From the NCBI GenBank assembly GCA_002105175.1, contig MCGE01000016.1, positions 441,501 to 505,500 on the forward strand: a stretch of DNA of 64,000 bases. Direction: 5' to 3'. Source of the stretch: Absidia repens (Eukaryota; Mucoromycota; Mucoromycetes; Mucorales; Cunninghamellaceae). Positions within the stretch are counted from its first letter, which is position 1. The number at the start of each line of letters is the position of its first letter. The notes beneath the pieces were generated by a model. That model was not told the origin of the DNA and made no database searches. It saw only the letters and a program-made list of their open reading frames with translations. Shown here piece by piece: positions 28,583-43,543 of the stretch. Made by a program: the position numbers and the translations under genes.

Positions 28583-28988
28583 TGTCGTATTCCTGGTTCC
28601 TGATTAGTAATATTTATGTCAAAATATCCATACCATCATTATTTGTCATCATCCACACATATCAGGTACGCGGCTACTCATCGCGTCCCAACAATTGTAC
28701 CTTGTCACTACCCAGCATATCCTTACACTGGCTATGTTTCACTTGGTCTACAATCAAGATCAAAGGTTACTCATCTATCTATTCCATAATACACTATTTT
28801 ATTCCCTCATCTCGAACTCTACCAATAATCCATTATCATCTACAATCATTTATCATCATAGAAATTTATTATTACAACATCCGCTTCTCTAGCTTTTACT
28901 ATAAAAACCCACTGTCATTTTATTCAATAAAAAACCATATCAATTGTATCACTTATTTACTCTTGTCTTTATTTTTACAAACATTTCA
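28583..28988 (+). repeat. 5' LTR of the chromovirus (family B)
   Basis: 406 bp, TGTCGTATTCC to ACAAACATTTCA. Contains ACTATAAAAACCC (probable TATA box, about 28900) and ATTCAATAAAAAACC (probable polyadenylation signal) about 30 bp later. The sequence following it (T-run, AAGTGAATACTC) is not an obvious tRNA primer-binding site. Confidence 0.93.
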
Positions 28989-29049
28989 TTTTTTTAAGTG
29001 AATACTCATTTTTATTTATTTATCCAAACTCTATCTTTTTCTCTCTGCC

Positions 29050-29781
29050 ATGTCCAACTTTAACGAATTTGTCTCTGCTGCTGAAGGTGAAGCTATTATG
29101 CAAGGTGTTGCTGCTGTCTCGTCCTCCCCTGCTGCTCCTTCCTCTGCTCCTGCTCTCACCGATCTCCAAGATGAAGACATTGTCATGACCTCTTCTGCCG
29201 ATTCCAAACATGCACCAAAGCCCAGTCTTCAGGAAAAGTTGGCAGAACTCCGCTCCGAAGCCAAGGAATTGTCCATCTTTTTCACCTTCATGGATTTTGA
29301 TGACCCTGCATACAACCAAACCAAAACCAAGCTGGATTTATATGCCGACAAGATCAAGACCTTGGAAAAACATTTTGTCAACTTGGATCAAGAAGCTGTG
29401 AACCCTCGTATTCTTGGTTCCATCCCAATCTTCCAATTGCCCTCTCACGCCAAGGTGAACCATAATTTGATTGTTTTTGACTCTGTGGCCTCCTTTATAC
29501 GCAAGTTTGAAAAGGTAATGGATCTTTACAAGTTGGACCTCAACACCCACTGGAAATCTTACTTGTCCTACGCCATGGCTGGTGAAGACGTGGACATCTG
29601 GTTCTCTGGCCAACTCAAATCATTTAATGGTACCTGGTCTGAAGCGAAAAACCATTCTGGAAGATGCATTCAGCGTCAAGGATCGTCTTATTACCAGCAC
29701 TTTGGACTTCTTCTCTGTCACCATGAATGCCAAGGAATCGGTAGCCGACTTTGGATTGCGGTTCAAGAATCTTGCCCATGA
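29050..29781 (+). CDS. Chromovirus gag, N-terminal part (frame-shifted)
   Basis: Starts MSNFNEFVSAAEGEA; Ala/Ser-rich, then a capsid-like helical region (LAELRSEAKELSIFF, FIRKFEKVMDLYKLDLNTHW). The real capsid sequence leaves this frame around 29650 (WSEAK at GCGAAAAACC) and continues one base later in the pol frame as TILEDAFSVKDRLITSTLDF. The residues after the shift point in this frame (NHSGRCIQRQ...) are noise. It is either a programmed +1 shift in the A5 run or a one-base insertion. Confidence 0.8.
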   Translation: MSNFNEFVSAAEGEAIMQGVAAVSSSPAAPSSAPALTDLQDEDIVMTSSADSKHAPKPSLQEKLAELRSEAKELSIFFTFMDFDDPAYNQTKTKLDLYADKIKTLEKHFVNLDQEAVNPRILGSIPIFQLPSHAKVNHNLIVFDSVASFIRKFEKVMDLYKLDLNTHWKSYLSYAMAGEDVDIWFSGQLKSFNGTWSEAKNHSGRCIQRQGSSYYQHFGLLLCHHECQGIGSRLWIAVQESCP

Positions 29782-32700
29782 AGCTCAGTGGTCCGACGAC
29801 AAAACCAGTGCCATGCTGTGTCTCCGTGCTCTTCCTCGTGTCCTTCAAGGCAATGTGCTTGGCTCCTTCCACGGAAACTCTTCCCCCGGTGATCTTCCTG
29901 CTACAGCATCTGAAGTCTTGAAGATTGCTAACAAGGTCAGCCGCCAAAAGCGCTCCTTCGGTGATGATGGTGATGATGATGTGGTCCCCCACAAGAAAAA
30001 GAACTCTTCGGGACGTCATAACAAGAATCTCTACTGCAGCCATCACGGCTCTGGCTCCAACCATTCGTCCGCCGAATGCCGCCAACTGAAAACCAACAAC
30101 AGCAACAACAGCAACAACAACCGTCGTACCGGTTTCTCTTCTGCTTCCTCTTCTTCTGCTTCCTCCTCTTCTTCTGCTTCCTCCTCCTTCCCTTCCTCTG
30201 CCAGCACCATCCGCAACCCTTGCTATCATTGCAAGAATGTCACTTGGTCCCCGCAACATGACAAGGAATGCCCCGTGAAGCAAGCCAAACTGGCAAGAAA
30301 ACCTTTTGTTCGTTCTCTCCGTTTGCCTCTGGCCAACCATCCTGCTGACTCTGCCCTTGTGGATTTAAATGAATCCATGGAAGCCATACGAGTGCAAGCT
30401 CACGATGACTCTATGACAGGTAACACACCTAAAAAATACATCAATGCAATCACACAATCATCTAATACAAATTTTGTTTTCCCTCTTTTGCTACAGAGTA
30501 AACAAGCCATGGCTTTACTAGACACCGGCGCAGATATATCAGTGATTAGCATAGATTTTTTAAAAAATAATAATATTTTATTTAATAAAACAGATCATGA
30601 TTCTATCCCTAAAACTACTCTACATCTAGTTGGAAAAAATAACACTATACTAAGTTACGGCAAAACACATCCTGTTCAAATTGAATTCAACAATGTATCT
30701 AGATCACATTCCTTCGAAGTACTAGATCTTGCTGATGGCCTTGATTGCTACATCGGTAATGACTTGCTTGACAAATTCGGAGTGATGATCAGTAACTTGC
30801 CACACACTTGGCCAAATCATGATTTGCATACACCAAAAGAAAATCACCATGTTGATAATCCACCTGTTCCTAATGATTCACCGGCTGGTACCCTACAGGA
30901 AAGAGAAAACTTCCTACAGCTGATTAAACCATACACAGAAAAAAATCAACAGATTCCGATTACCTCTTTTTGTCCACTAGAAGAATCCATCATCAGATTG
31001 GATACACCTACTTTGACTACAGAGCGTACAAATCATCGACAATATCCTATCGCTATAAAGATGCAGCCGTTGGTGGATGAAGCTGTTGCACAATGGTTGA
31101 AGGATGGCACAGTCGTTGAAGCCCCAGTCAATACCACATGGAATAGTCCATTGACTTTGGCACCTAAGAAAGATGAAAAAGGATTAGTATCTGGCTATCG
31201 ACCCTGTCTCGACCCACGCCATATCAATAAACATCTAAAAGATGACATTTTTCCTTTACCTTTAATCAAAGATATCTTCGAAGGTATGCATGGTGCCACC
31301 GTGTTCACCACATTGGACTTGAAAAGTGCATTCCATCGTTTTAAAATTCATCCAGATGACCAACATAAGACAACCTTCACACATAGAGGACGTCAATACA
31401 TGTTCCAAGGAGCACCCTTCGGTCTAAAACCATTGTCAGCAAAATTTCAACGAGTCATGAATACTATATTCAAGCATTTACCGTTTATCCATACATTTGT
31501 TGATGATGTCGTCGTCTATTCCCCAGATATGAAGTCGCACATCGCACATGTCTGCACAGCCATAGAACGGTTAACAGAAGCCAACCTAATCTTGAATCCA
31601 AAGAAATGTCATTGGGCACAAACTGCAGTATATCTACTTGGTTTTTGCGTGTCTGACAAAGGCTATGATCTTGATCCCCGAAAGGTTTGCAATGTATTGG
31701 AATGGAAACGTCCGACATCTGGTAAAGGTGTTCAGCAATTTCTTGGTATCGTCAACTATTTCCGTAGCCATCTTCCTAATGTCGCTGCCTTGACCGCACC
31801 ATTGGATGCTTTGCGCTATGCTGATGCTATCACAGAAAAAGAATGGACATCAGTTCATGATCAACATTTCCACATGATTAAACAACAATTACAAAGTAAT
31901 ACACTTTTGCACTTCCCTGATCCAGACCAACCATTCTACGTTGCCACAGATGCATCCAATTACGGAATAGGTGCTGCCTTATACCAAATCATTAACGGCA
32001 AGGAACGTTTCCTCGGATACATGGCACGATCACTGTCGCCATCGGAACGTAACTACAGCACAAATAAAAGGGAATTATTAGCAATCGTTTTCGCCCTCAA
32101 AAAATTCCATAAATATCTATGGGGCACTCCATTCACACTCTACACGGACCATCGTGCACTTACTTACATTCATACCCAAAAACAAGCTTCACCAATGATG
32201 ATCAACTGGCTGGATACCATTCTGGACTATTCGTTCACTATCATCCATAAGCCTGGCGACTTGAATATCTTTCCTGATCTCCTTTCACGTCTGGCAACAC
32301 CGTTCAAAGAGATCCCGGGGGGTAAGCTTGCACCGCAATACAAAAATAAAAATAGTACATCAAGGGTAACGTCCAACGGTTCCAGCAACCAAAGAGTTCC
32401 ACATAGCGTAGTCAGATCGAATCACCACATTCGCGCTATACAGTCAATGATGGATGACTATTTCACACCTCCACTTGAAGAACAGAAGTCGATCCTGCAA
32501 AGAATACACAAATTTGGACACTTCGGAGCAGAAGCTATCGTAAAGGCAGCACACAATGAAGGATTGAGTTGGACAAACCTAAAGAAAGAAGCATTAGAAA
32601 TCGTCCAACAATGCACCGCTTGCCAGCAATACAACATCGCAAAGAAAGGATACAATCCACTTCGTCCAATATACGCCTACTTACCAGGTGAACATTGGTC

Positions 32701-33805
32701 AATCGACTTGACAGGACCCTTTACAGTTTCACTAAAAGGAAATACATATCTGTTAGTCATGGTAGATGTTTGCACACGCTTCGTTATACTCAGAGCATTA
32801 CCTGATAAAAAATCTGACACCATCATACATACACTCATCCAGGTATTCGGTGACTTTGGCTATCCTAGCATCATACAATCGGATAATGGTACCGAATTCA
32901 AGAATCAGTTCTTCGAAAAGTTGCATAAAGCTATGGGAATTGATCGTCGATTTTCCACACCATATCATCCAAGAGGCAATGGACTTGCTGAAAGATACGT
33001 ACAAACAGCCAAACAATTGTTAAACAAAGAAAAACAAGGCACTAGAAAAGATTGGGATTGGTACGTACCAAATGTACAGTTAGCTATAAATCACAAGGTT
33101 TCACCACGCCTTCAAACACCACCCTTCACACTCATGTTCGCCAGACACATGACTACGCCATATGTACTTACAAAAGACCACGCCGATAACACCATCAAAA
33201 GACCAATGACATACGATGAGTTAATAGAACGTCTCGACTACATGGCCAATATAGTGTTTCCAGCCATTCGAGAAAAGACTGATAATGCTGTACAAAATCA
33301 AAAGGACGTCTTTGACAGAACGCATAGAATCGTAGACTTTCCAATCGGCAGTTACGTCGTGGTGAAGCTACCTACAAGAGCAAATAAATTAGCACCCGTA
33401 TATGACGGTCCATATGAAGTCATGCAAAAAACAACACAAGGTAATTACCTTCTAAAAGACATGGCTGGCGACCTAACATCACGAAACTATGTACCATCTG
33501 AGTTGAAGGCAATTTCGCAAGATGAAAGCAACGTCGATGCTGAAGTATATGAAGTCAAAGACATAGTAGATCACAAGGGTACACCCAGACATCGTCAATA
33601 CATGGTACGCTGGAAAGGTTATTCAGATGAACATAACCAATGGGTAAAAGCACAGGATATCAACGCACAGGATGCTATAGACAAATACTGGGAAAATAGA
33701 GAAAACATAAAAAAAAGTGAAGAAGCGCTAAATAAACAAATGCCGCCACAGAAAAGAAAAAAGTATGCCGACCAAAAATACAAGTCAAACAAAAGACGAA
33801 ATTAA
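29582..33805 (+). CDS. Chromovirus gag C-terminus and pol polyprotein
   Basis: Open for 1,407 codons; the first ~25 codons are upstream of the frame switch and probably untranslated in this frame. In order: end of capsid; cysteine/histidine knuckles YCSHHGSGSNHSSAEC and CYHCKNVTWSPQHDKEC; aspartic protease LLDTGADISVIS (about residue 312); reverse transcriptase with TTLDLKSAFHRFKI (about 577) and FVDDVVVYS (about 638); RNase H with YVATDASNYGIGAALYQ (about 786); integrase with H-H-CTAC zinc site (about 977-1014), catalytic SIDLTGPF, QSDNGTEFKN and NGLAERYVQTAK; GPY/F-like APVYDGPYEV; and a C-terminal chromodomain (VYEVKDIVDHK, QYMVRWKGYSDEHNQW, about 1322-1365). All catalytic residues are present. 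The chromodomain likely directs insertion to heterochromatin, matching its location in a repeat nest. Confidence 0.95.
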   Translation: MKTWTSGSLANSNHLMVPGLKRKTILEDAFSVKDRLITSTLDFFSVTMNAKESVADFGLRFKNLAHEAQWSDDKTSAMLCLRALPRVLQGNVLGSFHGNSSPGDLPATASEVLKIANKVSRQKRSFGDDGDDDVVPHKKKNSSGRHNKNLYCSHHGSGSNHSSAECRQLKTNNSNNSNNNRRTGFSSASSSSASSSSSASSSFPSSASTIRNPCYHCKNVTWSPQHDKECPVKQAKLARKPFVRSLRLPLANHPADSALVDLNESMEAIRVQAHDDSMTGNTPKKYINAITQSSNTNFVFPLLLQSKQAMALLDTGADISVISIDFLKNNNILFNKTDHDSIPKTTLHLVGKNNTILSYGKTHPVQIEFNNVSRSHSFEVLDLADGLDCYIGNDLLDKFGVMISNLPHTWPNHDLHTPKENHHVDNPPVPNDSPAGTLQERENFLQLIKPYTEKNQQIPITSFCPLEESIIRLDTPTLTTERTNHRQYPIAIKMQPLVDEAVAQWLKDGTVVEAPVNTTWNSPLTLAPKKDEKGLVSGYRPCLDPRHINKHLKDDIFPLPLIKDIFEGMHGATVFTTLDLKSAFHRFKIHPDDQHKTTFTHRGRQYMFQGAPFGLKPLSAKFQRVMNTIFKHLPFIHTFVDDVVVYSPDMKSHIAHVCTAIERLTEANLILNPKKCHWAQTAVYLLGFCVSDKGYDLDPRKVCNVLEWKRPTSGKGVQQFLGIVNYFRSHLPNVAALTAPLDALRYADAITEKEWTSVHDQHFHMIKQQLQSNTLLHFPDPDQPFYVATDASNYGIGAALYQIINGKERFLGYMARSLSPSERNYSTNKRELLAIVFALKKFHKYLWGTPFTLYTDHRALTYIHTQKQASPMMINWLDTILDYSFTIIHKPGDLNIFPDLLSRLATPFKEIPGGKLAPQYKNKNSTSRVTSNGSSNQRVPHSVVRSNHHIRAIQSMMDDYFTPPLEEQKSILQRIHKFGHFGAEAIVKAAHNEGLSWTNLKKEALEIVQQCTACQQYNIAKKGYNPLRPIYAYLPGEHWSIDLTGPFTVSLKGNTYLLVMVDVCTRFVILRALPDKKSDTIIHTLIQVFGDFGYPSIIQSDNGTEFKNQFFEKLHKAMGIDRRFSTPYHPRGNGLAERYVQTAKQLLNKEKQGTRKDWDWYVPNVQLAINHKVSPRLQTPPFTLMFARHMTTPYVLTKDHADNTIKRPMTYDELIERLDYMANIVFPAIREKTDNAVQNQKDVFDRTHRIVDFPIGSYVVVKLPTRANKLAPVYDGPYEVMQKTTQGNYLLKDMAGDLTSRNYVPSELKAISQDESNVDAEVYEVKDIVDHKGTPRHRQYMVRWKGYSDEHNQWVKAQDINAQDAIDKYWENRENIKKSEEALNKQMPPQKRKKYADQKYKSNKRRN

Positions 33806-33955
33806 ACTTCCGCCAGAAGGCGCAAAGAAAAAAAAAAAAAAAAAAAAAAATGCATACTATTTTTCCTTTCTTCCTTCCTTTCTTCATTCCTCCATCTCTA
33901 TACACCATGAATACCTAACTCAAACAAGCGGTCTCAAGAACCTGGAAGAGGGTTA

Positions 33956-34361
33956 TGTCGTATTCCTGGTTCCTGATTAGTAATATTTATGTCAAAATAT
34001 CCATACCATCATTATTTGTCATCATCCACACATATCAGGTACGCGGCTACTCATCGCGTCCCAACAATTGTACCTTGTCACTACCCAGCATATCCTTACA
34101 CTGGCTATGTTTCACTTGGTCTACAATCAAGATCAAAGGTTACTCATCTATCTATTCCATAATACACTATTTTATTCCCTCATCTCGAACTCTACCAATA
34201 ATCCATTATCATCTACAATCATTTATCATCATAGAAATTTATTATTACAACATCCGCTTCTCTAGCTTTTACTATAAAAACCCACTGTCATTTTATTCAA
34301 TAAAAAACCATATCAATTGTATCACTTATTTACTCTTGTCTTTATTTTTACAAACATTTCA
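33956..34361 (+). repeat. 3' LTR of the chromovirus (family B)
   Basis: 406 bp, same length and, by eye, same sequence as the 5' LTR, preceded by GGAAGAGGG and followed by the CATGC duplication. Confidence 0.95.
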
Positions 34362-36719: not shown

Positions 36720-36790
36720 TCCCATATGGTCTAGTGGCTAGGATCCGGCGCTTTCACCGCCGTGGCCGGGGTTCGATTCCCCGTGTGGGA
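36720..36790 (+). tRNA. tRNA-Glu (anticodon UUC)
   Basis: 71 nt folding as a standard cloverleaf: acceptor TCCCATA / TGTGGGA (with T-G and A-T pairs), D-arm GTCTAGTGGCTAGGAT with A-box match, anticodon stem CGGCG-CTTTCAC-CGCCG with anticodon TTC, T-arm CGGGG-TTCGATT-CCCCG (B box). No intron. A T5 run at 36797-36801 serves as Pol III terminator. An LTR retrotransposon begins 57 bp downstream. Confidence 0.96.
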
Positions 36791-36847
36791 AGATCACTTT
36801 TTGTGTCAAACATATTTTTGTTGCTTTTTTTTTGGCTTTGTTAGGAC

Positions 36848-37611
36848 TGTTGCGGCTAAATTTGTGATTTTAGTCCAACTGGATTGTGTTTTTGTAGGTT
36901 TTTTTATGTTTTTCTGGGTTGAATAGGATGTCTTGAGTGATCCTTTGGTGTAGCTTTGATCGTTTAGAGCTTTGAAAATAAATTTGTTCCTTCGGCGGAA
37001 TTTGAAATATCTTGTTCCTGAATTGGACAAAAATAGAATTGATAGTAGTGAGCACCAGAACTTTTGTAGATAAAGTCCAACTGTAGAGAAAGTTTATAAA
37101 AAATAAACTTGAAAGAGTAAAAAAAATAAAAAATAAAAGTATTGACCTTTGTTGGTTCAATAAAAATAAGTGTATAACACACAGTAAAAAAATAAAAAAG
37201 GACTTGTAGTCACAAAAAATAAAAGAAAGTTTCTATATAGACGATAGAAACAAAATAAAAATAAGACAGTGATTTGGTGGTTAAAAAACCTTTGTACTGA
37301 ATTTTATAAAAAAGGTTGAGATAATAATATAATAAAAATTAACTAAAGAAAAGAGAATTGGCGGGGGAAAGGTGGGGTATTTATACTAAAAAATAAAGTG
37401 GCGGCGAGTGGGTGTCATGTACCTGACAAGTGTTATGTGCATGACAAGTGTTATGTGCATGACAAGTGTTATGTGCATGATAGGTGTTATGTACGTGACA
37501 GAGGTAGTAATTTGATGAGAAGATAATATATATGAAAGAACCAATAAAAATAAGATAATAAAAAAAGGAAAGGCGGCAGCAAGGAAATCGTCGGTGGTCG
37601 TCTGCATGACA
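36848..37611 (-). repeat. 3' LTR of the integrase-less element
   Basis: 764 bp. Contains four tandem copies of a 20-bp unit (GACAAGTGTTATGTGCAT) near 37425-37500 and the 13-mer GTAGTGAGCACCA (37045-37057 on plus) that recurs beside the 5' LTR. Confidence 0.93.
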
Positions 37612-37744
37612 TCCTCGGGCCCGGAGAAAGCTGGACCTCCAGCGTCTAGTTGCATCCAATCGTCCTTGTCGTTGCATGGTTGGTTGAAGAGAAATTAATG
37701 GTTTTTTTTTTTTTTTTTTTTGAGGTGGTTAAATTGAGGATCGA

Positions 37745-40669
37745 TCAGTATCCCAGACGTGATAGGAAATCAGCGGCTTCCTGTTTTCGTCCATTTCGAT
37801 ACTTAATTTCAAAGTCATATTCAGCCAAGTATTGGATCCATCTTGCTACAATGCCAGATACTTTGGGTGATTGTACCAACCATCGTAAAGGTGAGTGGTC
37901 TGATATGACAGTGAATTTTTTGCCAAGTAAATAAGGTCTGAATAGTTGCAGGCTCCATACTAGGGCGAGACATTCCAATTTAGTAGCACCGTAGTTTTGT
38001 TCACTGTTTTTTAATCCGCGACTTGCATAAATCACAGGGTGTTCTTTGCCATCGTCGTCTAGCTGCGATAAGATGGTACCAATTCCTTTTTGAGAGGCGT
38101 CGCACACAATAATAAAGGGTTTCGAAAAATCAGCACGTCGAAGTATAGGTGCTTGTGTTAATTTTTGTTTCAAAAGGTTAAAGGCATCGGTTGCTTTTTG
38201 GTTCCAGGTAATATTTTTTGTCGTCTTGGTTTGTTCATGTAACGGTCTTGCAATGGCAGCAAAGTTTTTTATGAATCTCCGATAGTAAGAGGCCAATCCA
38301 ATAAAGCCCCTGATTTGTTTAAGGGTTTTAGGCGGTGGGAATTCCTGAATTTTTTTTATTTTTTCTTCATCCGTCTTTATTCCATTTTTTGTTATCACGT
38401 AGCCCAAAAATTTCAGTTCGTCTTTGAAGAATACGCACTTGTCGATGTTGAATAATAATCCTCCTTGTCGTGCACACATGAATACTTGTCGTAGATCCCG
38501 TATGTGTTGTATATAAGTTTTGGAATGGATGTTTAGGTCGTCAATGTAGGCAACAAGGCACTTGTTTAGTAAAGGACCAAAGCATAGGTCTATTAGGCGT
38601 TGAAAGGTAGCAGGACTATTTACTAACCCCATAGGCAGCATTTCGTATTGGTAGGTTCCAAACTTTGTTACGAATCCAGTTAATTCTTTGGTTTCTTCTT
38701 TCAATGGTACTTGGTGGAAACCAGAACGTAGGTCTAGTGCTGTGAATATTCTTGAACTGCCTAGTTCATCAATCAAGTCGTCAATTTTTGGCAAAGGGTA
38801 AGCGTCAACTTTGGTTAAAGCGTTTAGTTTGCGATAGTCAACAACCATTCGGTAATCACCATTCTTCTTCTTGACTAATATTATAGGTGCGGTATACGGT
38901 GTGCTTGCTGGTTTGATGATTCCCAGGTCACATAATCGGTCGAGCTCTTGCTTCAAGTATTCTTGCTCCACGGGTGCCATTCGGTATGGTCTATGTCGGA
39001 TAGGTGGTGCATTTTCTTTCAGGATAATTTCATGTTCCAGTAGTGTGGTCTTGCCCATTCTGTCATTGTGCCAGTCAAATACATCTTGGAATTCTGTAAG
39101 TAGATGTATAAAGGACTTGCGTATATCAGGCGGTACATCTCCTAACTGTAGTTTTTCTTCCTTTGTAGGGTCCAATTCTTGTGATGGTTGTATAGTGTCG
39201 TCGTCTTTTATCTCCATCTGTGCTAATTCGTATCCTGTGGATTGTTCGTCGTCTTCTTCTATTTCAAACTTTGTCATTCGATGCGCAATGATAGTGTTCG
39301 GTGGGTAACTTTTGTCGTTGTCCGTTATGTTGATATCTATGAACTGATTGTCTTTCAAATATTTCTCATAGGTGACATCTGGTTGCATGTGGATGATAGT
39401 TGGTAGAGCGTTATCATTGGGTGTATTTAAATCAACGGTGCACATGGTGTATGGTGGAAGGGTGAATCCATTTTCTTTGGTACTGATGGTTACTTCGGTG
39501 TCCGATACATGGTTTATTCGGAAAGCGTAGTCTTGGTCTTCAGCAGGTGTGATTTGACACAATTCTTGATCTTCATCGTCTTTGTCGTCGTGTTCCCATT
39601 CTTCTTCTTCTGTTTCTTCATCGGTGATTTCATCTTCATCACTTGTATCTTGATCGTCCACTATTGGTGTTGGTTTGACAGGGATTGGTTGACTTGGTGG
39701 TGGATTCTCTTCTTCATAGATAACGTGGGATGCTTTCAAGGTAACCGGCTTTGATGATGCTTTGATGTATGTGATAGGAATAATCATCTTCTTGTGTTTA
39801 TAGGTTACAGTTAGTGTTCCCATTTTGATGTTGATAATGGCTTGTGCATGATTCAACCAATCGATTCCTAGGATTAGGTGAGATGGGCATTGTGGCAGTA
39901 CTTCCATGTTAGTGGGTATACTAATGCCTTCGGTTATTTTGATAGGGACATCAAGGACTATTCCAAGGGTAGGTTGTCTGGTTCCATTACCAAGGGTGAA
40001 TACATTGGTAGATGGGGTATCGATTTCCATTCCCAGCATCTTCAACATGGTTCTTGACATACATGATTTGGCGGCACCACAATCTATCAAGGCTTTGATT
40101 TTTCTGTCCCCAATATATACTTCAGCATATGCGGCAGTTGTCACAACTTCTCCTTCTTCCATGGCGTTCAATGTTATAGGCGGCTTTCTTCTTTTGGGTC
40201 GACAGACATCACGTAGCTGTTTCTTTAGGTATGGTGATGCTTCGAGTAGATCTCCAACTTCAATATCGGCTTTACGGGTAAGGACATCGTCAGCGATACT
40301 ATATTTAATAGCGGGATGTGTAGGTACTGATCTTTGTTTCTTTTCAACCGTTTCTTGTGTAGGAATATTTTGTTGTGGTGGTTGTGTTGATGAGGATGGT
40401 GTGTCTTCCAATCCATTGGTTCTTCTTTTCTTTGCTGATTTTGGATCATGTAGGACATCAGGTGATCTGTCTTTTCTGGTAGCAACGTAGAAATCTATAT
40501 CTTCTTCATCATCTTCTTCTTCTTCTAATAAAAGGTTAGTATGTTTATTTTTATCTTTATACTTGTTTCGAATATCCATGGTGGTTAGGTTATGGGTTTG
40601 TTGTTGAGTATTGTTTTTGTTATCTTTATGTGGTTGGTTATGTGTGGATTTGTTAGGCGGGTTTTCCAA
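37745..40669 (-). CDS. Retrotransposon pol: protease, reverse transcriptase, RNase H (no integrase)
   Basis: 974 codons. The N-terminal ~140 residues are charged and disordered (LLLEEEEDDEEDIDFYV). Then a retropepsin-like domain with ALIDCGAAKSCMS (D-C-G in place of D-T-G, about residue 195) and HLILGIDWL; a Ty3/Gypsy reverse transcriptase with RMVVDYRKLNALT, RIFTALDLRSGFHQVPL and the catalytic AYIDDLNIHS; then RNase H with IIVCDASQKGIGTILSQ and VISDHSPLRWL. It ends EAADFLSRLGY, exactly where other Gypsy polyproteins lead into integrase. The frame is intact. The Cys after the catalytic Asp is unusual but seen in some retropepsins. The start is uncertain: gag ends 27 bp upstream in another frame. 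Confidence 0.93.
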   Translation of the reverse strand: MENPPNKSTHNQPHKDNKNNTQQQTHNLTTMDIRNKYKDKNKHTNLLLEEEEDDEEDIDFYVATRKDRSPDVLHDPKSAKKRRTNGLEDTPSSSTQPPQQNIPTQETVEKKQRSVPTHPAIKYSIADDVLTRKADIEVGDLLEASPYLKKQLRDVCRPKRRKPPITLNAMEEGEVVTTAAYAEVYIGDRKIKALIDCGAAKSCMSRTMLKMLGMEIDTPSTNVFTLGNGTRQPTLGIVLDVPIKITEGISIPTNMEVLPQCPSHLILGIDWLNHAQAIINIKMGTLTVTYKHKKMIIPITYIKASSKPVTLKASHVIYEEENPPPSQPIPVKPTPIVDDQDTSDEDEITDEETEEEEWEHDDKDDEDQELCQITPAEDQDYAFRINHVSDTEVTISTKENGFTLPPYTMCTVDLNTPNDNALPTIIHMQPDVTYEKYLKDNQFIDINITDNDKSYPPNTIIAHRMTKFEIEEDDEQSTGYELAQMEIKDDDTIQPSQELDPTKEEKLQLGDVPPDIRKSFIHLLTEFQDVFDWHNDRMGKTTLLEHEIILKENAPPIRHRPYRMAPVEQEYLKQELDRLCDLGIIKPASTPYTAPIILVKKKNGDYRMVVDYRKLNALTKVDAYPLPKIDDLIDELGSSRIFTALDLRSGFHQVPLKEETKELTGFVTKFGTYQYEMLPMGLVNSPATFQRLIDLCFGPLLNKCLVAYIDDLNIHSKTYIQHIRDLRQVFMCARQGGLLFNIDKCVFFKDELKFLGYVITKNGIKTDEEKIKKIQEFPPPKTLKQIRGFIGLASYYRRFIKNFAAIARPLHEQTKTTKNITWNQKATDAFNLLKQKLTQAPILRRADFSKPFIIVCDASQKGIGTILSQLDDDGKEHPVIYASRGLKNSEQNYGATKLECLALVWSLQLFRPYLLGKKFTVISDHSPLRWLVQSPKVSGIVARWIQYLAEYDFEIKYRNGRKQEAADFLSRLGY

Positions 40670-40695
40670 CTGACCATCAACTGCAGTTGCCCGTG

Positions 40696-41763
40696 CTAGT
40701 TTTTTGACTGATGATTTTGTTGAGTGGGTTGTTGTGTTTGATGTTGTTGGTATTGTGGATTGTGTTGATACTGTTGATTGTTGTATGAGCGTCGGTTATT
40801 GTAATTGGGACGGCGGTTTTGATTCATGGGGGGTGATGGATGATAACCATCGTAGTCACCGTAGTTAGGATCAAAGACGGGGTCTTGATTTTGGTTATTG
40901 TAATTGCGTTGGCCATTATTGTGATGATACGAGTTTTGATTATAATGTGGGGCATTGTATTGTCGGGTTTGATGACGTGGGTTATTGTATCGAGGGTTGT
41001 GTGGTTGGTTGTATGTCCCATTTTGATTTTTTGAGAAGTTATTGAATTCTTCTTTGATGATACTTCTGATGGATTTTTGTATATCTTTCATGTCCAGTGG
41101 GTTTGTTGAAGTGATAGCGTTCAAACTGGGTGAGTTTGTAGCGGTTTGATAGGGAGACATTTGAATGGTATCTGCGGGATGAGCAATACGTCGTGGGTGG
41201 AAGGGATTGTCAGCCATTGTAACCTGTTGAGGGTTATGTGCAGTCCAATAACCTTCGGCGGCTTTGAGCCATGCGTCAATGTCTTTACAGCCAAGTGATA
41301 TGCAGTGTTGTTGTATGATAGGATGTACTCCTGCACGGAATCGGCTTTGGATCATTGATTCGGAATCAATTTCGGCAAGTTCAGCAGCTTCAAACAGTCT
41401 TGCGTAAAATGTTCTTGGATGTTCGTCAATACCTTGTACCATGTTGTTGAAGGCATACTCATATGTTTGTATGAGTTCAGGGGTGATATATTGGTCCATT
41501 AATTTTTTCATGACTTCGGAGTATGAAAGTGGGTCTTTTGTTTTTTTTAGCAATTTGTTTACAAAAGTCCTAGCAGCGTGGTACAATTGTGTCTTGAGTA
41601 TAATCAGCTTGCGATCTTCATCATTGATGTTTGAGAGTGCAAAGTAGTTATCCAGTGTTTGTTTAAAATTTCTGAAGTCTTCTCCTTCGAATCCAGAAAA
41701 GGGCATTAGCTTCATTTTCGGTTGGTAGATAGGTCCGTTGGCCAACACAGTTTGTTCGTTCAT
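40696..41763 (-). CDS. Retrotransposon gag of the integrase-less element
   Basis: 355 codons, starting MNEQTVLANGPIYQPKMKLM. The first half is a retrotransposon gag capsid (FSGFEGEDFRNFKQTLDNYF, TFVNKLLKKTKD, TPELIQTYEYAFNNMVQG, RTFYARLFEAAELAEI). The second half is Asn/Gln/Tyr/His-rich (NQNSYHHNNGQRNYNNQ) and has no CCHC zinc knuckle, so nucleic-acid binding may depend on the low-complexity tail. Pol starts 27 nt downstream of the stop in a different frame, so reinitiation, bypass or a separate message is needed for pol. Confidence 0.9.
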   Translation of the reverse strand: MNEQTVLANGPIYQPKMKLMPFSGFEGEDFRNFKQTLDNYFALSNINDEDRKLIILKTQLYHAARTFVNKLLKKTKDPLSYSEVMKKLMDQYITPELIQTYEYAFNNMVQGIDEHPRTFYARLFEAAELAEIDSESMIQSRFRAGVHPIIQQHCISLGCKDIDAWLKAAEGYWTAHNPQQVTMADNPFHPRRIAHPADTIQMSPYQTATNSPSLNAITSTNPLDMKDIQKSIRSIIKEEFNNFSKNQNGTYNQPHNPRYNNPRHQTRQYNAPHYNQNSYHHNNGQRNYNNQNQDPVFDPNYGDYDGYHPSPPMNQNRRPNYNNRRSYNNQQYQHNPQYQQHQTQQPTQQNHQSKN

Positions 41764-41950
41764 CTTGTTTTGGTTTCCAATTTGTATTTTTGAAAGTTTT
41801 GATAAATATTTCGGAGGTAGGGTTTGTAAGTGTGGACGTTGCGTCTTGAAATCTTGGCAGAGTTTACTTGAGTTTGAGGTTATTAAAAGTTTTGAGTGAT
41901 GTTTCTTTGGAAATTTTTGAGTAGATCACCCCTGTAGTGAGCACCAAATA

Positions 41951-42714
41951 TGTTGCGGCTAAATTTGTGATTTTAGTCCAACTGGATTGTGTTTTTGTAG
42001 GTTTTTTTATGTTTTTCTGGGTTGAATAGGATGTCTTGAGTGATCCTTTGGTGTAGCTTTGATCGTTTAGAGCTTTGAAAATAAATTTGTTCCTTCGGCG
42101 GAATTTGAAATATCTTGTTCCTGAATTGGACAAAAATAGAATTGATAGTAGTGAGCACCAGAACTTTTGTAGATAAAGTCCAACTGTAGAGAAAGTTTAT
42201 AAAAAATAAACTTGAAAGAGTAAAAAAAATAAAAAATAAAAGTATTGACCTTTGTTGGTTCAATAAAAATAAGTGTATAACACACAGTAAAAAAATAAAA
42301 AAGGACTTGTAGTCACAAAAAATAAAAGAAAGTTTCTATATAGACGATAGAAACAAAATAAAAATAAGACAGTGATTTGGTGGTTAAAAAACCTTTGTAC
42401 TGAATTTTATAAAAAAGGTTGAGATAATAATATAATAAAAATTAACTAAAGAAAAGAGAATTGGCGGGGGAAAGGTGGGGTATTTATACTAAAAAATAAA
42501 GTGGCGGCGAGTGGGTGTCATGTACCTGACAAGTGTTATGTGCATGACAAGTGTTATGTGCATGACAAGTGTTATGTGCATGATAGGTGTTATGTACGTG
42601 ACAGAGGTAGTAATTTGATGAGAAGATAATATATATGAAAGAACCAATAAAAATAAGATAATAAAAAAAGGAAAGGCGGCAGCAAGGAAATCGTCGGTGG
42701 TCGTCTGCATGACA
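41951..42714 (-). repeat. 5' LTR of the integrase-less element
   Basis: 764 bp, same length and by eye the same sequence as the 3' LTR. The inner boundary is TGTTGCGG (plus strand) next to GAGCACCAAATA. Confidence 0.93.
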
Positions 42715-42831
42715 GGACTAATTTTGGTTGGTTTTGTAGATTTGTATACCTTCTACGAGGACTGTGCAACGAGTTCATCATTCCTCCTGTAGCGCCGACG
42801 TTTATATTAAGCCCTACCAGTTGTTGGGAAA

Positions 42832-43543
42832 TGTTATGGCTAAAATGGGTGTGAAGCTTGTAACCGAGTAGTGTTTTTGTAAGTTTTTATGTTTTTTTTA
42901 GGTTGAATAGGATGTCTTGAGTTATCCTTTAGTATGGCTTTTGATTGTTTAGAGCTTGGAAAATAAGTTTGCGGAATGTGAAATATTTTGTTCCTTATTT
43001 GGACAAAAGTAGAATTGATGGTAGTGAGCACCAGAACTTTTGTAGATAAAGTCCAACTGTAGAGAAAGTTTATAAAAAATAAACTTGGATGAGTAAAACA
43101 AAATAAAAAGAATAGTATTGAAGTTTGTTGGTTCAATAAAAATATAGTGTATAACACACAATAAAAAAATAAAGACTTGTTGTCAAAAATAAAAGGAGGT
43201 TTCTATAATCCAAAAGAAACAGTAGATAATTTGAAGGTGTAATAACCTTTGTACCAAGTTTTATTTGATATATTGAGAAAACTGATAAAAAACTAAAGAA
43301 AAAAAAAAGTGGGATATTTATACTAAAAAAAATAGAGAAAGTGGTCGGAGGCGAGGTGTGGAGGAGGCAGGAGTGATTCGAGACATGGTGTAATTCAAGG
43401 TCATCAAGGGTGGTCCAGAGGCATTTTTAGTCGCTATGATAGCAAAGGCATCTGCAGGCTCAATGTTGCTGGGAGCAGCCTCAGGCTGATCCTCGACAAT
43501 ATCAAATACGATAATTTCAATTTCAACGCTCACTAGCCATAAC
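42832..43543 (-). mobile_element. Diverged solo LTR-like element related to the neighbouring LTRs
   Basis: Starts TGTTATGGCTAAAATGG and shares with the 764-bp LTRs GTGTTTTTGTA, GTTGAATAGGATGTCTTGAG, GTAGTGAGCACCAGAAC and TTTTGTAGATAAAGTCC. It ends near TAGCCATAACG, an inverted copy of its first 10 bases. The last ~200 bp are unrelated to the intact LTRs. No clear target duplication. It lies 118 bp beyond the intact element. A minus-strand frame at 43318-43533 is probably chance. Confidence 0.7.

What the first reader, a model, noticed from the sequence alone, without database searches (positions are those of the whole stretch)
36848..42714. Recently moved LTR retrotransposon that encodes no integrase
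The element has matching 764-bp LTRs, intact gag and an intact 974-codon protease-RT-RNase H frame, and a GGAC duplication at both ends, all signs of recent insertion. Yet pol stops right after RNase H and 133 bp remain before the LTR. Gag also lacks a zinc knuckle, and the protease has D-C-G. It must borrow an integrase (for example from the chromovirus in this window), or integrate another way. A coding-complete but integrase-free element would be an unusual lineage.
Basis: partly seen in the sequence, partly recalled or inferred. Interest (0 to 1): 0.78.

Follow-up and report, generated by a model that had tools for sequence, protein, structure and literature searches.

The report
Integrase-deleted fungal retrotransposon beside a tRNA
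This jumping DNA element in a soil fungus keeps everything it needs to copy itself except the enzyme that inserts copies, and it very probably borrows that enzyme from close relatives, which encode it as a separate gene and aim it just downstream of tRNA genes.

Summary
The window (Absidia repens, inferred) holds a young Ty3/Gypsy-type element: identical 764-bp LTRs, 4-bp TSD, intact gag and PR-RT-RH, A-AAA-AAC frameshift site. Pol ending right after RNase H is a trait of its Mucorales clade (59 of 120 listed homologues), not a defect of this copy. Complete relatives encode integrase as a separate ~443-aa ORF about 150-280 bp further on, with a conserved, well-placed AUG, behind a poly(A) tract in 23 of 23 spacers read; a fourth small ORF follows. 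The window copy lost integrase and most of ORF4. Of 30 copies examined, 13 have and 13 lack integrase. Two integrase-less subfamilies share deletion junctions (5 of 6 and 5 of 5 copies exactly), so they multiplied after the loss, RT-RH still under purifying selection. Copies of both kinds insert antiparallel, 19-240 bp downstream of tRNA or U6 genes where such a gene was found. So sister elements very probably supply integrase in trans; the window's chromovirus (5-bp TSD) is not the donor. Independent translation of integrase, and loss before insertion in this very copy, are inferred.

The parts
41951..42714 (-). 5' LTR (764 bp; TGTCATG...GCCGCAACA in element sense)
   Evidence: 764/764 identical to the other LTR
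36848..37611 (-). 3' LTR (764 bp), the end nearest the tRNA gene
   Evidence: also 764/764 identical to the LTR C1:384178-384941 of a sister copy
36844..36847 (.). target-site duplication GGAC, left copy
42715..42718 (.). target-site duplication GGAC, right copy
41928..41946 (-). primer binding site, 19 nt complementary to the 3' end of tRNA-Ile(AAT) plus CCA, 4 nt after the LTR
   Evidence: sequence; LTR end plus PBS core found 28 times in 27 of the 30 loci L009-L038; tRNA-Ile gene read in L071
40696..41763 (-). gag, 355 aa, no zinc knuckle, N/Q/R/Y-rich tail
   Evidence: (weak Retrotrans_gag, below cut-off)
40699..40705 (-). -1 ribosomal frameshift heptamer A AAA AAC just before the gag stop
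37745..40795 (-). pol open frame: protease, RT, RNase H; stops at ...DFLSRLGY*; no integrase
37702..37721 (-). A20 tract, read as the fusion of two poly(A) tracts of the sister copy, left by the deletion
   Evidence: comparison with sister copy L010
37612..37701 (-). remnant of the leader and tail of the deleted ORF4 and the stretch next to the LTR
   Evidence: my reading
36720..36791 (+). tRNA-Glu(TTC) gene, the likely target; element is antiparallel, 56 bp downstream
36839..36847 (-). 9-bp end of an older related LTR into which the element inserted (counting the target duplication)
42871..43330 (-). rest of that older LTR (78% to LTR positions 39-546)
   Evidence: C8:484371-484830

Best explanation
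A young, non-autonomous member of a Mucorales Ty3/Gypsy clade whose Pol is split: Gag and PR-RT-RH are made by a -1 frameshift and end after RNase H, while integrase is a separate ORF further 3'. This copy has lost the integrase ORF and most of ORF4 by deletion, the last step apparently between two poly(A) tracts. It can still make particles and cDNA with its own proteins (inferred from intact frames). Integrase from sister elements acts in trans on its LTR ends, makes a 4-bp duplication and places it tens to about two hundred bp downstream of a Pol III gene, here 56 bp from a tRNA-Glu. Shown: anatomy, split architecture, targeting, shared deletion junctions in two sister subfamilies, selection on RT-RH. 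Inferred: trans supply of the integrase protein, independent translation of integrase from its own AUG, and that this particular copy lost integrase before rather than after inserting.
For: Open 443-aa integrase ORFs (H2C2 and rve; best PDB match Ty3 7q5b, E 5.8e-24) follow pol in many copies. 59 of 120 listed RT-RH homologues (of 2381 found) end in SR[LI]G[YNHR] directly after RNase H, and the integrase start methionine aligns in 5 of 5 own-genome and 16 of 19 homologous integrases compared. Census: 13 with, 13 without, 4 unassigned of 30 loci. Six copies share one integrase relic, five of them the exact junction; five copies of the ~75% family share another junction exactly. RT-RH dN/dS 0.07-0.12 in that five-copy family (4 copies compared), like integrase-bearing copies. 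4-bp TSDs in the window copy, the integrase-less sister at C1 and an integrase-bearing copy at C45. Placement downstream of tRNA/U6 in both classes; 61 genome hits at 54 distinct B-box-like places for B-box followed by LTR end, 0 for the reversed LTR end at 45-75 bp, backward controls 0. Sister C1:384178 shares the LTR and the 3' remnant.
Against: The window copy's own deletion is not shared base for base by any other copy read: C1 keeps 456 bp more, so its last deletion could have happened in place after insertion, or integrase could have been lost twice. In the pol tree C1 groups with an integrase-bearing copy (L026, 100/100) and the window copy with another integrase-less copy (L028, weakly), so 3' ends and pol have different histories. 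Not every copy faces a Pol III gene: no tRNA was found within about 1.5 kb of the integrase-bearing C45 copy nor in the 801 bp read beside the C38 copy (L075). 19 of 23 pol-integrase spacers hold at least one upstream ATG, which argues against simple reinitiation at the integrase AUG. No expression or transposition data. Only three TSD pairs were read.
Confidence: 0.8

Rival explanations
1. Dead remnant: an integrase-bearing copy inserted recently and then lost integrase in place, for example by slippage between poly(A) tracts; nothing is borrowed.
For: The last deletion falls exactly between two poly(A) tracts, an easy in-place event, and is seen in this copy only.
Against: The sister copy with the same LTR also lacks integrase; two other integrase-less subfamilies share junctions over 6 and 5 dispersed copies and keep RT-RH under selection, so integrase-less elements do transpose in this genome.
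Confidence: 0.2
2. A true integrase-free lineage that inserts by another route (homologous recombination or another recombinase).
For: The element and several subfamilies encode no complete integrase.
Against: 4-bp TSDs in the two integrase-less copies read on both sides, TG...CA ends, and placement downstream of Pol III genes like integrase-bearing sisters; insertion 9 bp inside a diverged older LTR with a duplication, not a homologous exchange; an integrase-bearing sister with identical LTRs lives in the same genome (C45).
Confidence: 0.03
3. Integrase is borrowed from the chromovirus at 28583-34361 in the same window.
For: It has a long open pol frame with an H2C2 match and LTRs identical over 406 bp.
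Against: It made a 5-bp duplication (CATGC) and its LTR start differs (TGTCGTATT); its integrase region is 23% identical to the family's.
Confidence: 0.02
4. In complete relatives integrase is after all made as part of Pol, by splicing, stop-codon readthrough or slippage at the poly(A) tract, so 'split Pol' is only apparent.
For: In some copies the integrase frame is open up to the pol stop (L014, L017); poly(A) tracts are slippery; upstream ATGs lie in 19 of 23 spacers.
Against: The pol-integrase frame relation is 0, 1 or 2, also between near-identical copies with open integrase; the integrase AUG is conserved and has A at -3 and G at +4 in 19 of 19 copies; between poly(A) and AUG, YAG acceptor candidates are not at one place and are absent in L026 and L011.
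Confidence: 0.2

Closest known systems
Ty3 of Saccharomyces cerevisiae (Metaviridae)
   Same: PR-RT-RH then integrase in order, Pol III-gene targeting; its integrase is the closest solved structure by sequence (7q5b)
   Different: Ty3 integrase is part of Pol and Ty3 inserts upstream of the tRNA start (review PMC5911963, passages; partly recalled); here it is a separate ORF and insertion is downstream
Skipper-2 of dictyostelids
   Same: LTR element of the Ty3/Gypsy kind inserting downstream of tRNA genes (8-23 bp to about 140 bp; PMC5911963 and PMC5006619, passages)
   Different: Skipper-2 is a chromovirus with a diverged chromodomain and integrase in ORF2; no chromodomain was found in the one family integrase scanned and integrase is a separate ORF
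Non-autonomous LTR derivatives (LARD, TRIM, BARE2 type; recalled)
   Same: move with proteins supplied by a relative
   Different: those lack Gag and/or all coding (recalled); here Gag, PR, RT and RH are intact and under selection and only integrase and ORF4 are missing
Rhizopus Ty3/Gypsy elements (PMC3248453: the most successful R. oryzae element is Ty3/Gypsy and clusters with nothing else; passages)
   Same: Rhizopus proteins in the homologue lists have the same split: Pol ending SRLGY and separate ~448-aa integrase
   Different: the passages seen do not mention the split or tRNA targeting; whether these proteins are that element was not tested

Membership tests
Ty3/Gypsy (Metaviridae) LTR retrotransposon | LTRs with TG...CA ends, short TSD, tRNA primer site | tested here: met
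Ty3/Gypsy (Metaviridae) LTR retrotransposon | PR-RT-RH order with integrase 3' of RNase H | tested here: met
   met for the family; integrase absent from the window copy itself
Ty3/Gypsy (Metaviridae) LTR retrotransposon | integrase encoded within the pol frame | tested here: not met
   separate ORF, varying frame, own AUG
Chromovirus | chromodomain at the integrase C terminus | tested here: not met
   Pfam scan of one 443-aa family integrase (L013) finds only H2C2 and core-domain models
tRNA-targeting retrotransposon, downstream type | insertions clustered downstream of Pol III genes | tested here: met
   two integrase-bearing copies without such a gene in the flank read
Non-autonomous element mobilised in trans | copies sharing a coding deletion at different sites | tested here: inconclusive
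   met for two sister subfamilies; for the window copy only the LTR and the 3' remnant are shared with C1
Non-autonomous element mobilised in trans | transposition depends on a relative's protein | not testable with these tools
   needs expression and transposition data
LARD/TRIM | no coding capacity | tested here: not met
   gag and PR-RT-RH intact

The most novel reading that the evidence does not exclude
A clade of fungal LTR retrotransposons has turned integrase into a freestanding protein, translated from its own AUG behind a poly(A) tract (poly(A)-driven internal entry), so that integrase became a shared good: elements repeatedly discard it, keep Gag and RT under selection, and spread as obligate integrase parasites downstream of Pol III genes.
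Probability: 0.42. Interest if true: 0.8.

Novelty: new variant of a known kind. Interest (0 to 1): 0.62.

Why it matters
Integrase is normally delivered to the particle as part of Gag-Pol. A clade in which it is a separate ORF, with several integrase-less lineages living beside it, makes it testable how integrase reaches the cDNA and how selfish elements exploit each other. It would also be a fungal LTR family inserting downstream of tRNA and U6 genes; the 2018 review whose passages I read knew downstream insertion only from dictyostelids. The poly(A) tracts before both 3' ORFs suggest a compact polycistronic design.

Tried and rejected
Integrase hidden in the window copy: no integrase domain in pol or gag, and no H2C2 or family-integrase match at this element in six-frame searches of the genome. 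Chromovirus as donor: rejected on TSD length and LTR ends. Splicing or fixed frameshifting of integrase to pol: disfavoured, not excluded. ORF4 function: Pfam nothing convincing, the two homologues found are both from Absidia repens, AlphaFold model of no use (mean pLDDT 41). Paper searches returned no paper; two listed two each, none on the point in what I saw (PMC7928374 and PMC5911963 by passages, the other two by listing only). One script failed on a wrong blast option and was repeated; one printed far too much and was cut. Rows left out: 18 of 120 listed homologues from the protein tree (short coverage, or 31 or more residues after RNase H without being in my list of integrase-bearing proteins); loci L024 and L030 (pol end not reached), L032 and L036 (too little flank) from the integrase count; 40 of the 111 integrase hits were not counted (P0192-P0231). 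Changed on re-checking: number of tree rows, junction sharing (5 of 6), distance range, and two odds lowered slightly for the copies without a Pol III neighbour and the upstream ATGs.

Full report
OBSERVATION. The element is as described. LTRs 36848-37611 and 41951-42714 are identical (764/764) and flanked by GGAC. gag (355 aa) and PR-RT-RH (974 codons by the tool's start; open frame 40795-37745) are intact; Pfam finds protease, RT and RNase H only. A heptamer A AAA AAC in the gag frame at 40705-40699 explains gag-pol expression by -1 frameshift (that this motif works so is general knowledge). Primer site: 19 nt matching tRNA-Ile(AAT).

THE FAMILY HAS INTEGRASE, BUT NOT IN POL. A search of the window's own genome (47.4 Mb; Absidia repens by inference: an ORF4 homologue named Absidia repens lies on a contig of 2,241,197 bp, the length of G000 contig C34) gave 47 pol matches (a lower bound). 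In many copies an integrase ORF (H2C2 plus rve) follows the pol stop; in 23 spacers measured its AUG lies 146-279 bp further on. It is 443 aa in the copies first read; the nearest solved structure is Ty3 integrase. 59 of 120 listed homologues (2381 found), among them Absidia glauca, Rhizopus and Parasitella entries, end in SR[LI]G[YNHR] right after RNase H. Of the first 71 of 111 integrase hits, 43 are 430-450 aa long. The start methionine aligns at the same column in 5 of 5 own-genome and 16 of 19 homologous integrases that I put into one alignment; one starts 5 residues later and two are truncated. In an RT-RH tree of 102 of the 120 proteins plus the window's own, the label 'ends within 30 aa of RNase H' (73 rows) against 'integrase in the same protein' (30 rows) needs only 2 changes, one fused row (P0074) lying on the split side (quick method, long branches present). 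So the early stop is an old clade trait. A second family in this genome seems split too (pol frames of 862-955 aa with integrase frames of 442-503 aa).

HOW INTEGRASE MAY BE MADE. All 23 pol-integrase spacers examined hold an A-run of 18-88 and no T-run of 8 or more; so do all 12 integrase-ORF4 spacers (longest A-run 14-44; the spacer boundary was misplaced in one, L007). Many of these copies are near-identical, so they stand for only a handful of lineages. Outside its elements the window has 18 A-runs and 17 T-runs of 11 or more, so the strand bias is not a genome habit. The frame between pol and integrase is 0, 1 or 2, also between near-identical copies with open integrase. The integrase AUG has A at -3 and G at +4 in 19 of 19 copies; between poly(A) and AUG, YAG acceptor candidates are not at one place and are absent in L026 and L011. 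Against a simple scheme: 19 of 23 spacers contain one to five upstream ATGs. Independent initiation by internal entry is my reading; A-rich entry sites are known in fungi (PMC4678720, passages). No expression data support it yet.

WHAT THE WINDOW COPY LOST. The sister at C1:384178-390478 has the same LTR (764/764; its other LTR lacks one 18-bp unit), TSD CGGC, and also no integrase. Its post-pol region is 456 bp longer than the window's and contains two poly(A) tracts; the window copy equals it with everything between the tracts removed. In my reading of the C1 sequence the integrase start is fused to the integrase end. In the pol tree C1 pairs with L026, which has integrase (100/100), and the window copy with L028, which does not (94/84), so the 3' module and pol have different histories. 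Hence a shared integrase loss is likely but not proven for these two.

INTEGRASE-LESS COPIES MULTIPLY. Of 30 pol loci, 13 carry integrase (some with frame breaks), 13 do not, 4 could not be assigned. Six of the 13 (L012, L019, L020, L021, L023, L028) share one relic, an insertion after codon ~31; five of them share the deletion junction near codon 66 exactly, L019 differs there, and L012 has a longer insertion. Five of the ~75%-identical family (L027, L029, L035, L037, L038) share another relic of 52-54 codons ending at the same base. On the pol tree integrase status needs 6 changes, at least 4 forced by well-supported branches. RT-RH dN/dS (600 C-terminal codons) is 0.07-0.12 in the five-copy family (4 of 5 compared), 0.05-0.09 among four integrase-less copies of the main family, and 0.05-0.10 among six integrase-bearing ones, save one pair at 0.27 with 15 differences. 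Two more copies with open pol frames (C23:1241310, C51:54444) have no integrase match downstream, but their DNA was not read.

TARGETING. The window copy and the C1 sister both start 56 bp downstream of a tRNA gene (Glu, Arg), each 9 bp inside an older LTR end. Of 8 integrase-bearing copies whose outer flank was fetched, 6 face a tRNA, 1 a U6 gene, and 1 (L075) only further LTR-like sequence; the ninth, at C45, has no tRNA within about 1.5 kb on either side and lies next to another element. Integrase-less copies L019, L027, L037 and L038 face tRNAs too; the C1 sister is itself inserted in the LTR end of integrase-less L012; the outer flanks of the rest were not read. The copies' own LTR starts lie 19-240 bp from the tRNA end, older LTR ends 37-113 bp, all in the antiparallel sense. 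Genome-wide, B-box then LTR end at 14-44, 45-75 and 76-106 bp gave 3, 27 and 31 hits, 54 distinct B-box-like places; reversed LTR end at 45-75: 0; LTR end upstream at 70-100: 1, at a place that is also a downstream hit on the other strand; backward controls 0 in all five searches. That every B-box is a real tRNA was not checked. The short LTR ends stacked between tRNA and element look like layers of successive insertions. Known LTR elements downstream of tRNA genes are the dictyostelid Skipper-2 (PMC5911963 and PMC5006619, passages).

DONOR. An integrase-bearing sister with identical LTRs (829/829) and 4-bp TSD exists at C45:1535439-1543522, though its own integrase has a frame break; other copies have open 443-aa integrase. 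The window chromovirus made a 5-bp TSD and has another LTR start. Sister integrase in trans is therefore the likely route.

NOVELTY. Searches for a split integrase, integrase-less LTR elements, Mucorales elements with tRNA targeting, or downstream/U6 targeting gave no paper describing this in what I saw: passages of PMC5911963, PMC3248453, PMC7928374, PMC11943222 and PMC5006619, listings for the rest. The library lacks most subscription journals. I rate it a new variant of a known kind.

Noticed in passing
L077 (G000:C34:1514300-1514900): An integrase-bearing copy sits about 40 bp downstream of a U6 snRNA gene (Rfam RF00026), so the target may be Pol III genes in general, not only tRNA genes.
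   Followed up: yes
between tRNA genes and elements in L071, L072, L073, L074, L076, L078: Stacks of short LTR ends (TGTTACGGCTA...) that look like a layered record of successive insertions behind one tRNA gene.
   Followed up: partly
L007 2251-2817 (-) and the ends of L043-L067: A fourth ORF (189 aa in L007) between integrase and the 3' LTR, running into the LTR, also preceded by a poly(A) tract; no known domain; the two homologues found are from Absidia repens.
   Followed up: partly
G000 C3:836454-839682, C18:169243-172217, C26:121546-124520 and others: A more distant Gypsy family of this genome also seems to have pol (862-955 aa frames) and integrase (442-503 aa frames) in separate frames.
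   Followed up: partly
post-pol regions of L010, L011, L012, L026: Repeats of TTGGTGCTCA, the start of the tRNA-Ile primer site, in the spacer and inside the LTR; possibly traces of internal priming or template switching.
   Followed up: no
L032, L036: Integrase start of one subfamily joined to the spacer motif of another at GATGCGACC, a sign of template switching between co-packaged RNAs.
   Followed up: no
window 28583-34361 (+): Chromovirus-like element with LTRs identical over 406 bp, TSD CATGC and a 1428-aa frame holding an H2C2 match; chromodomain not tested; looks young.
   Followed up: partly
proteins P0135, P0139-P0144 (Rhizopus arrhizus, R. microsporus and unnamed): Integrase proteins of 714-722 aa, about 270 aa longer than the rest, perhaps fused to an ORF4-like part.
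   Followed up: no
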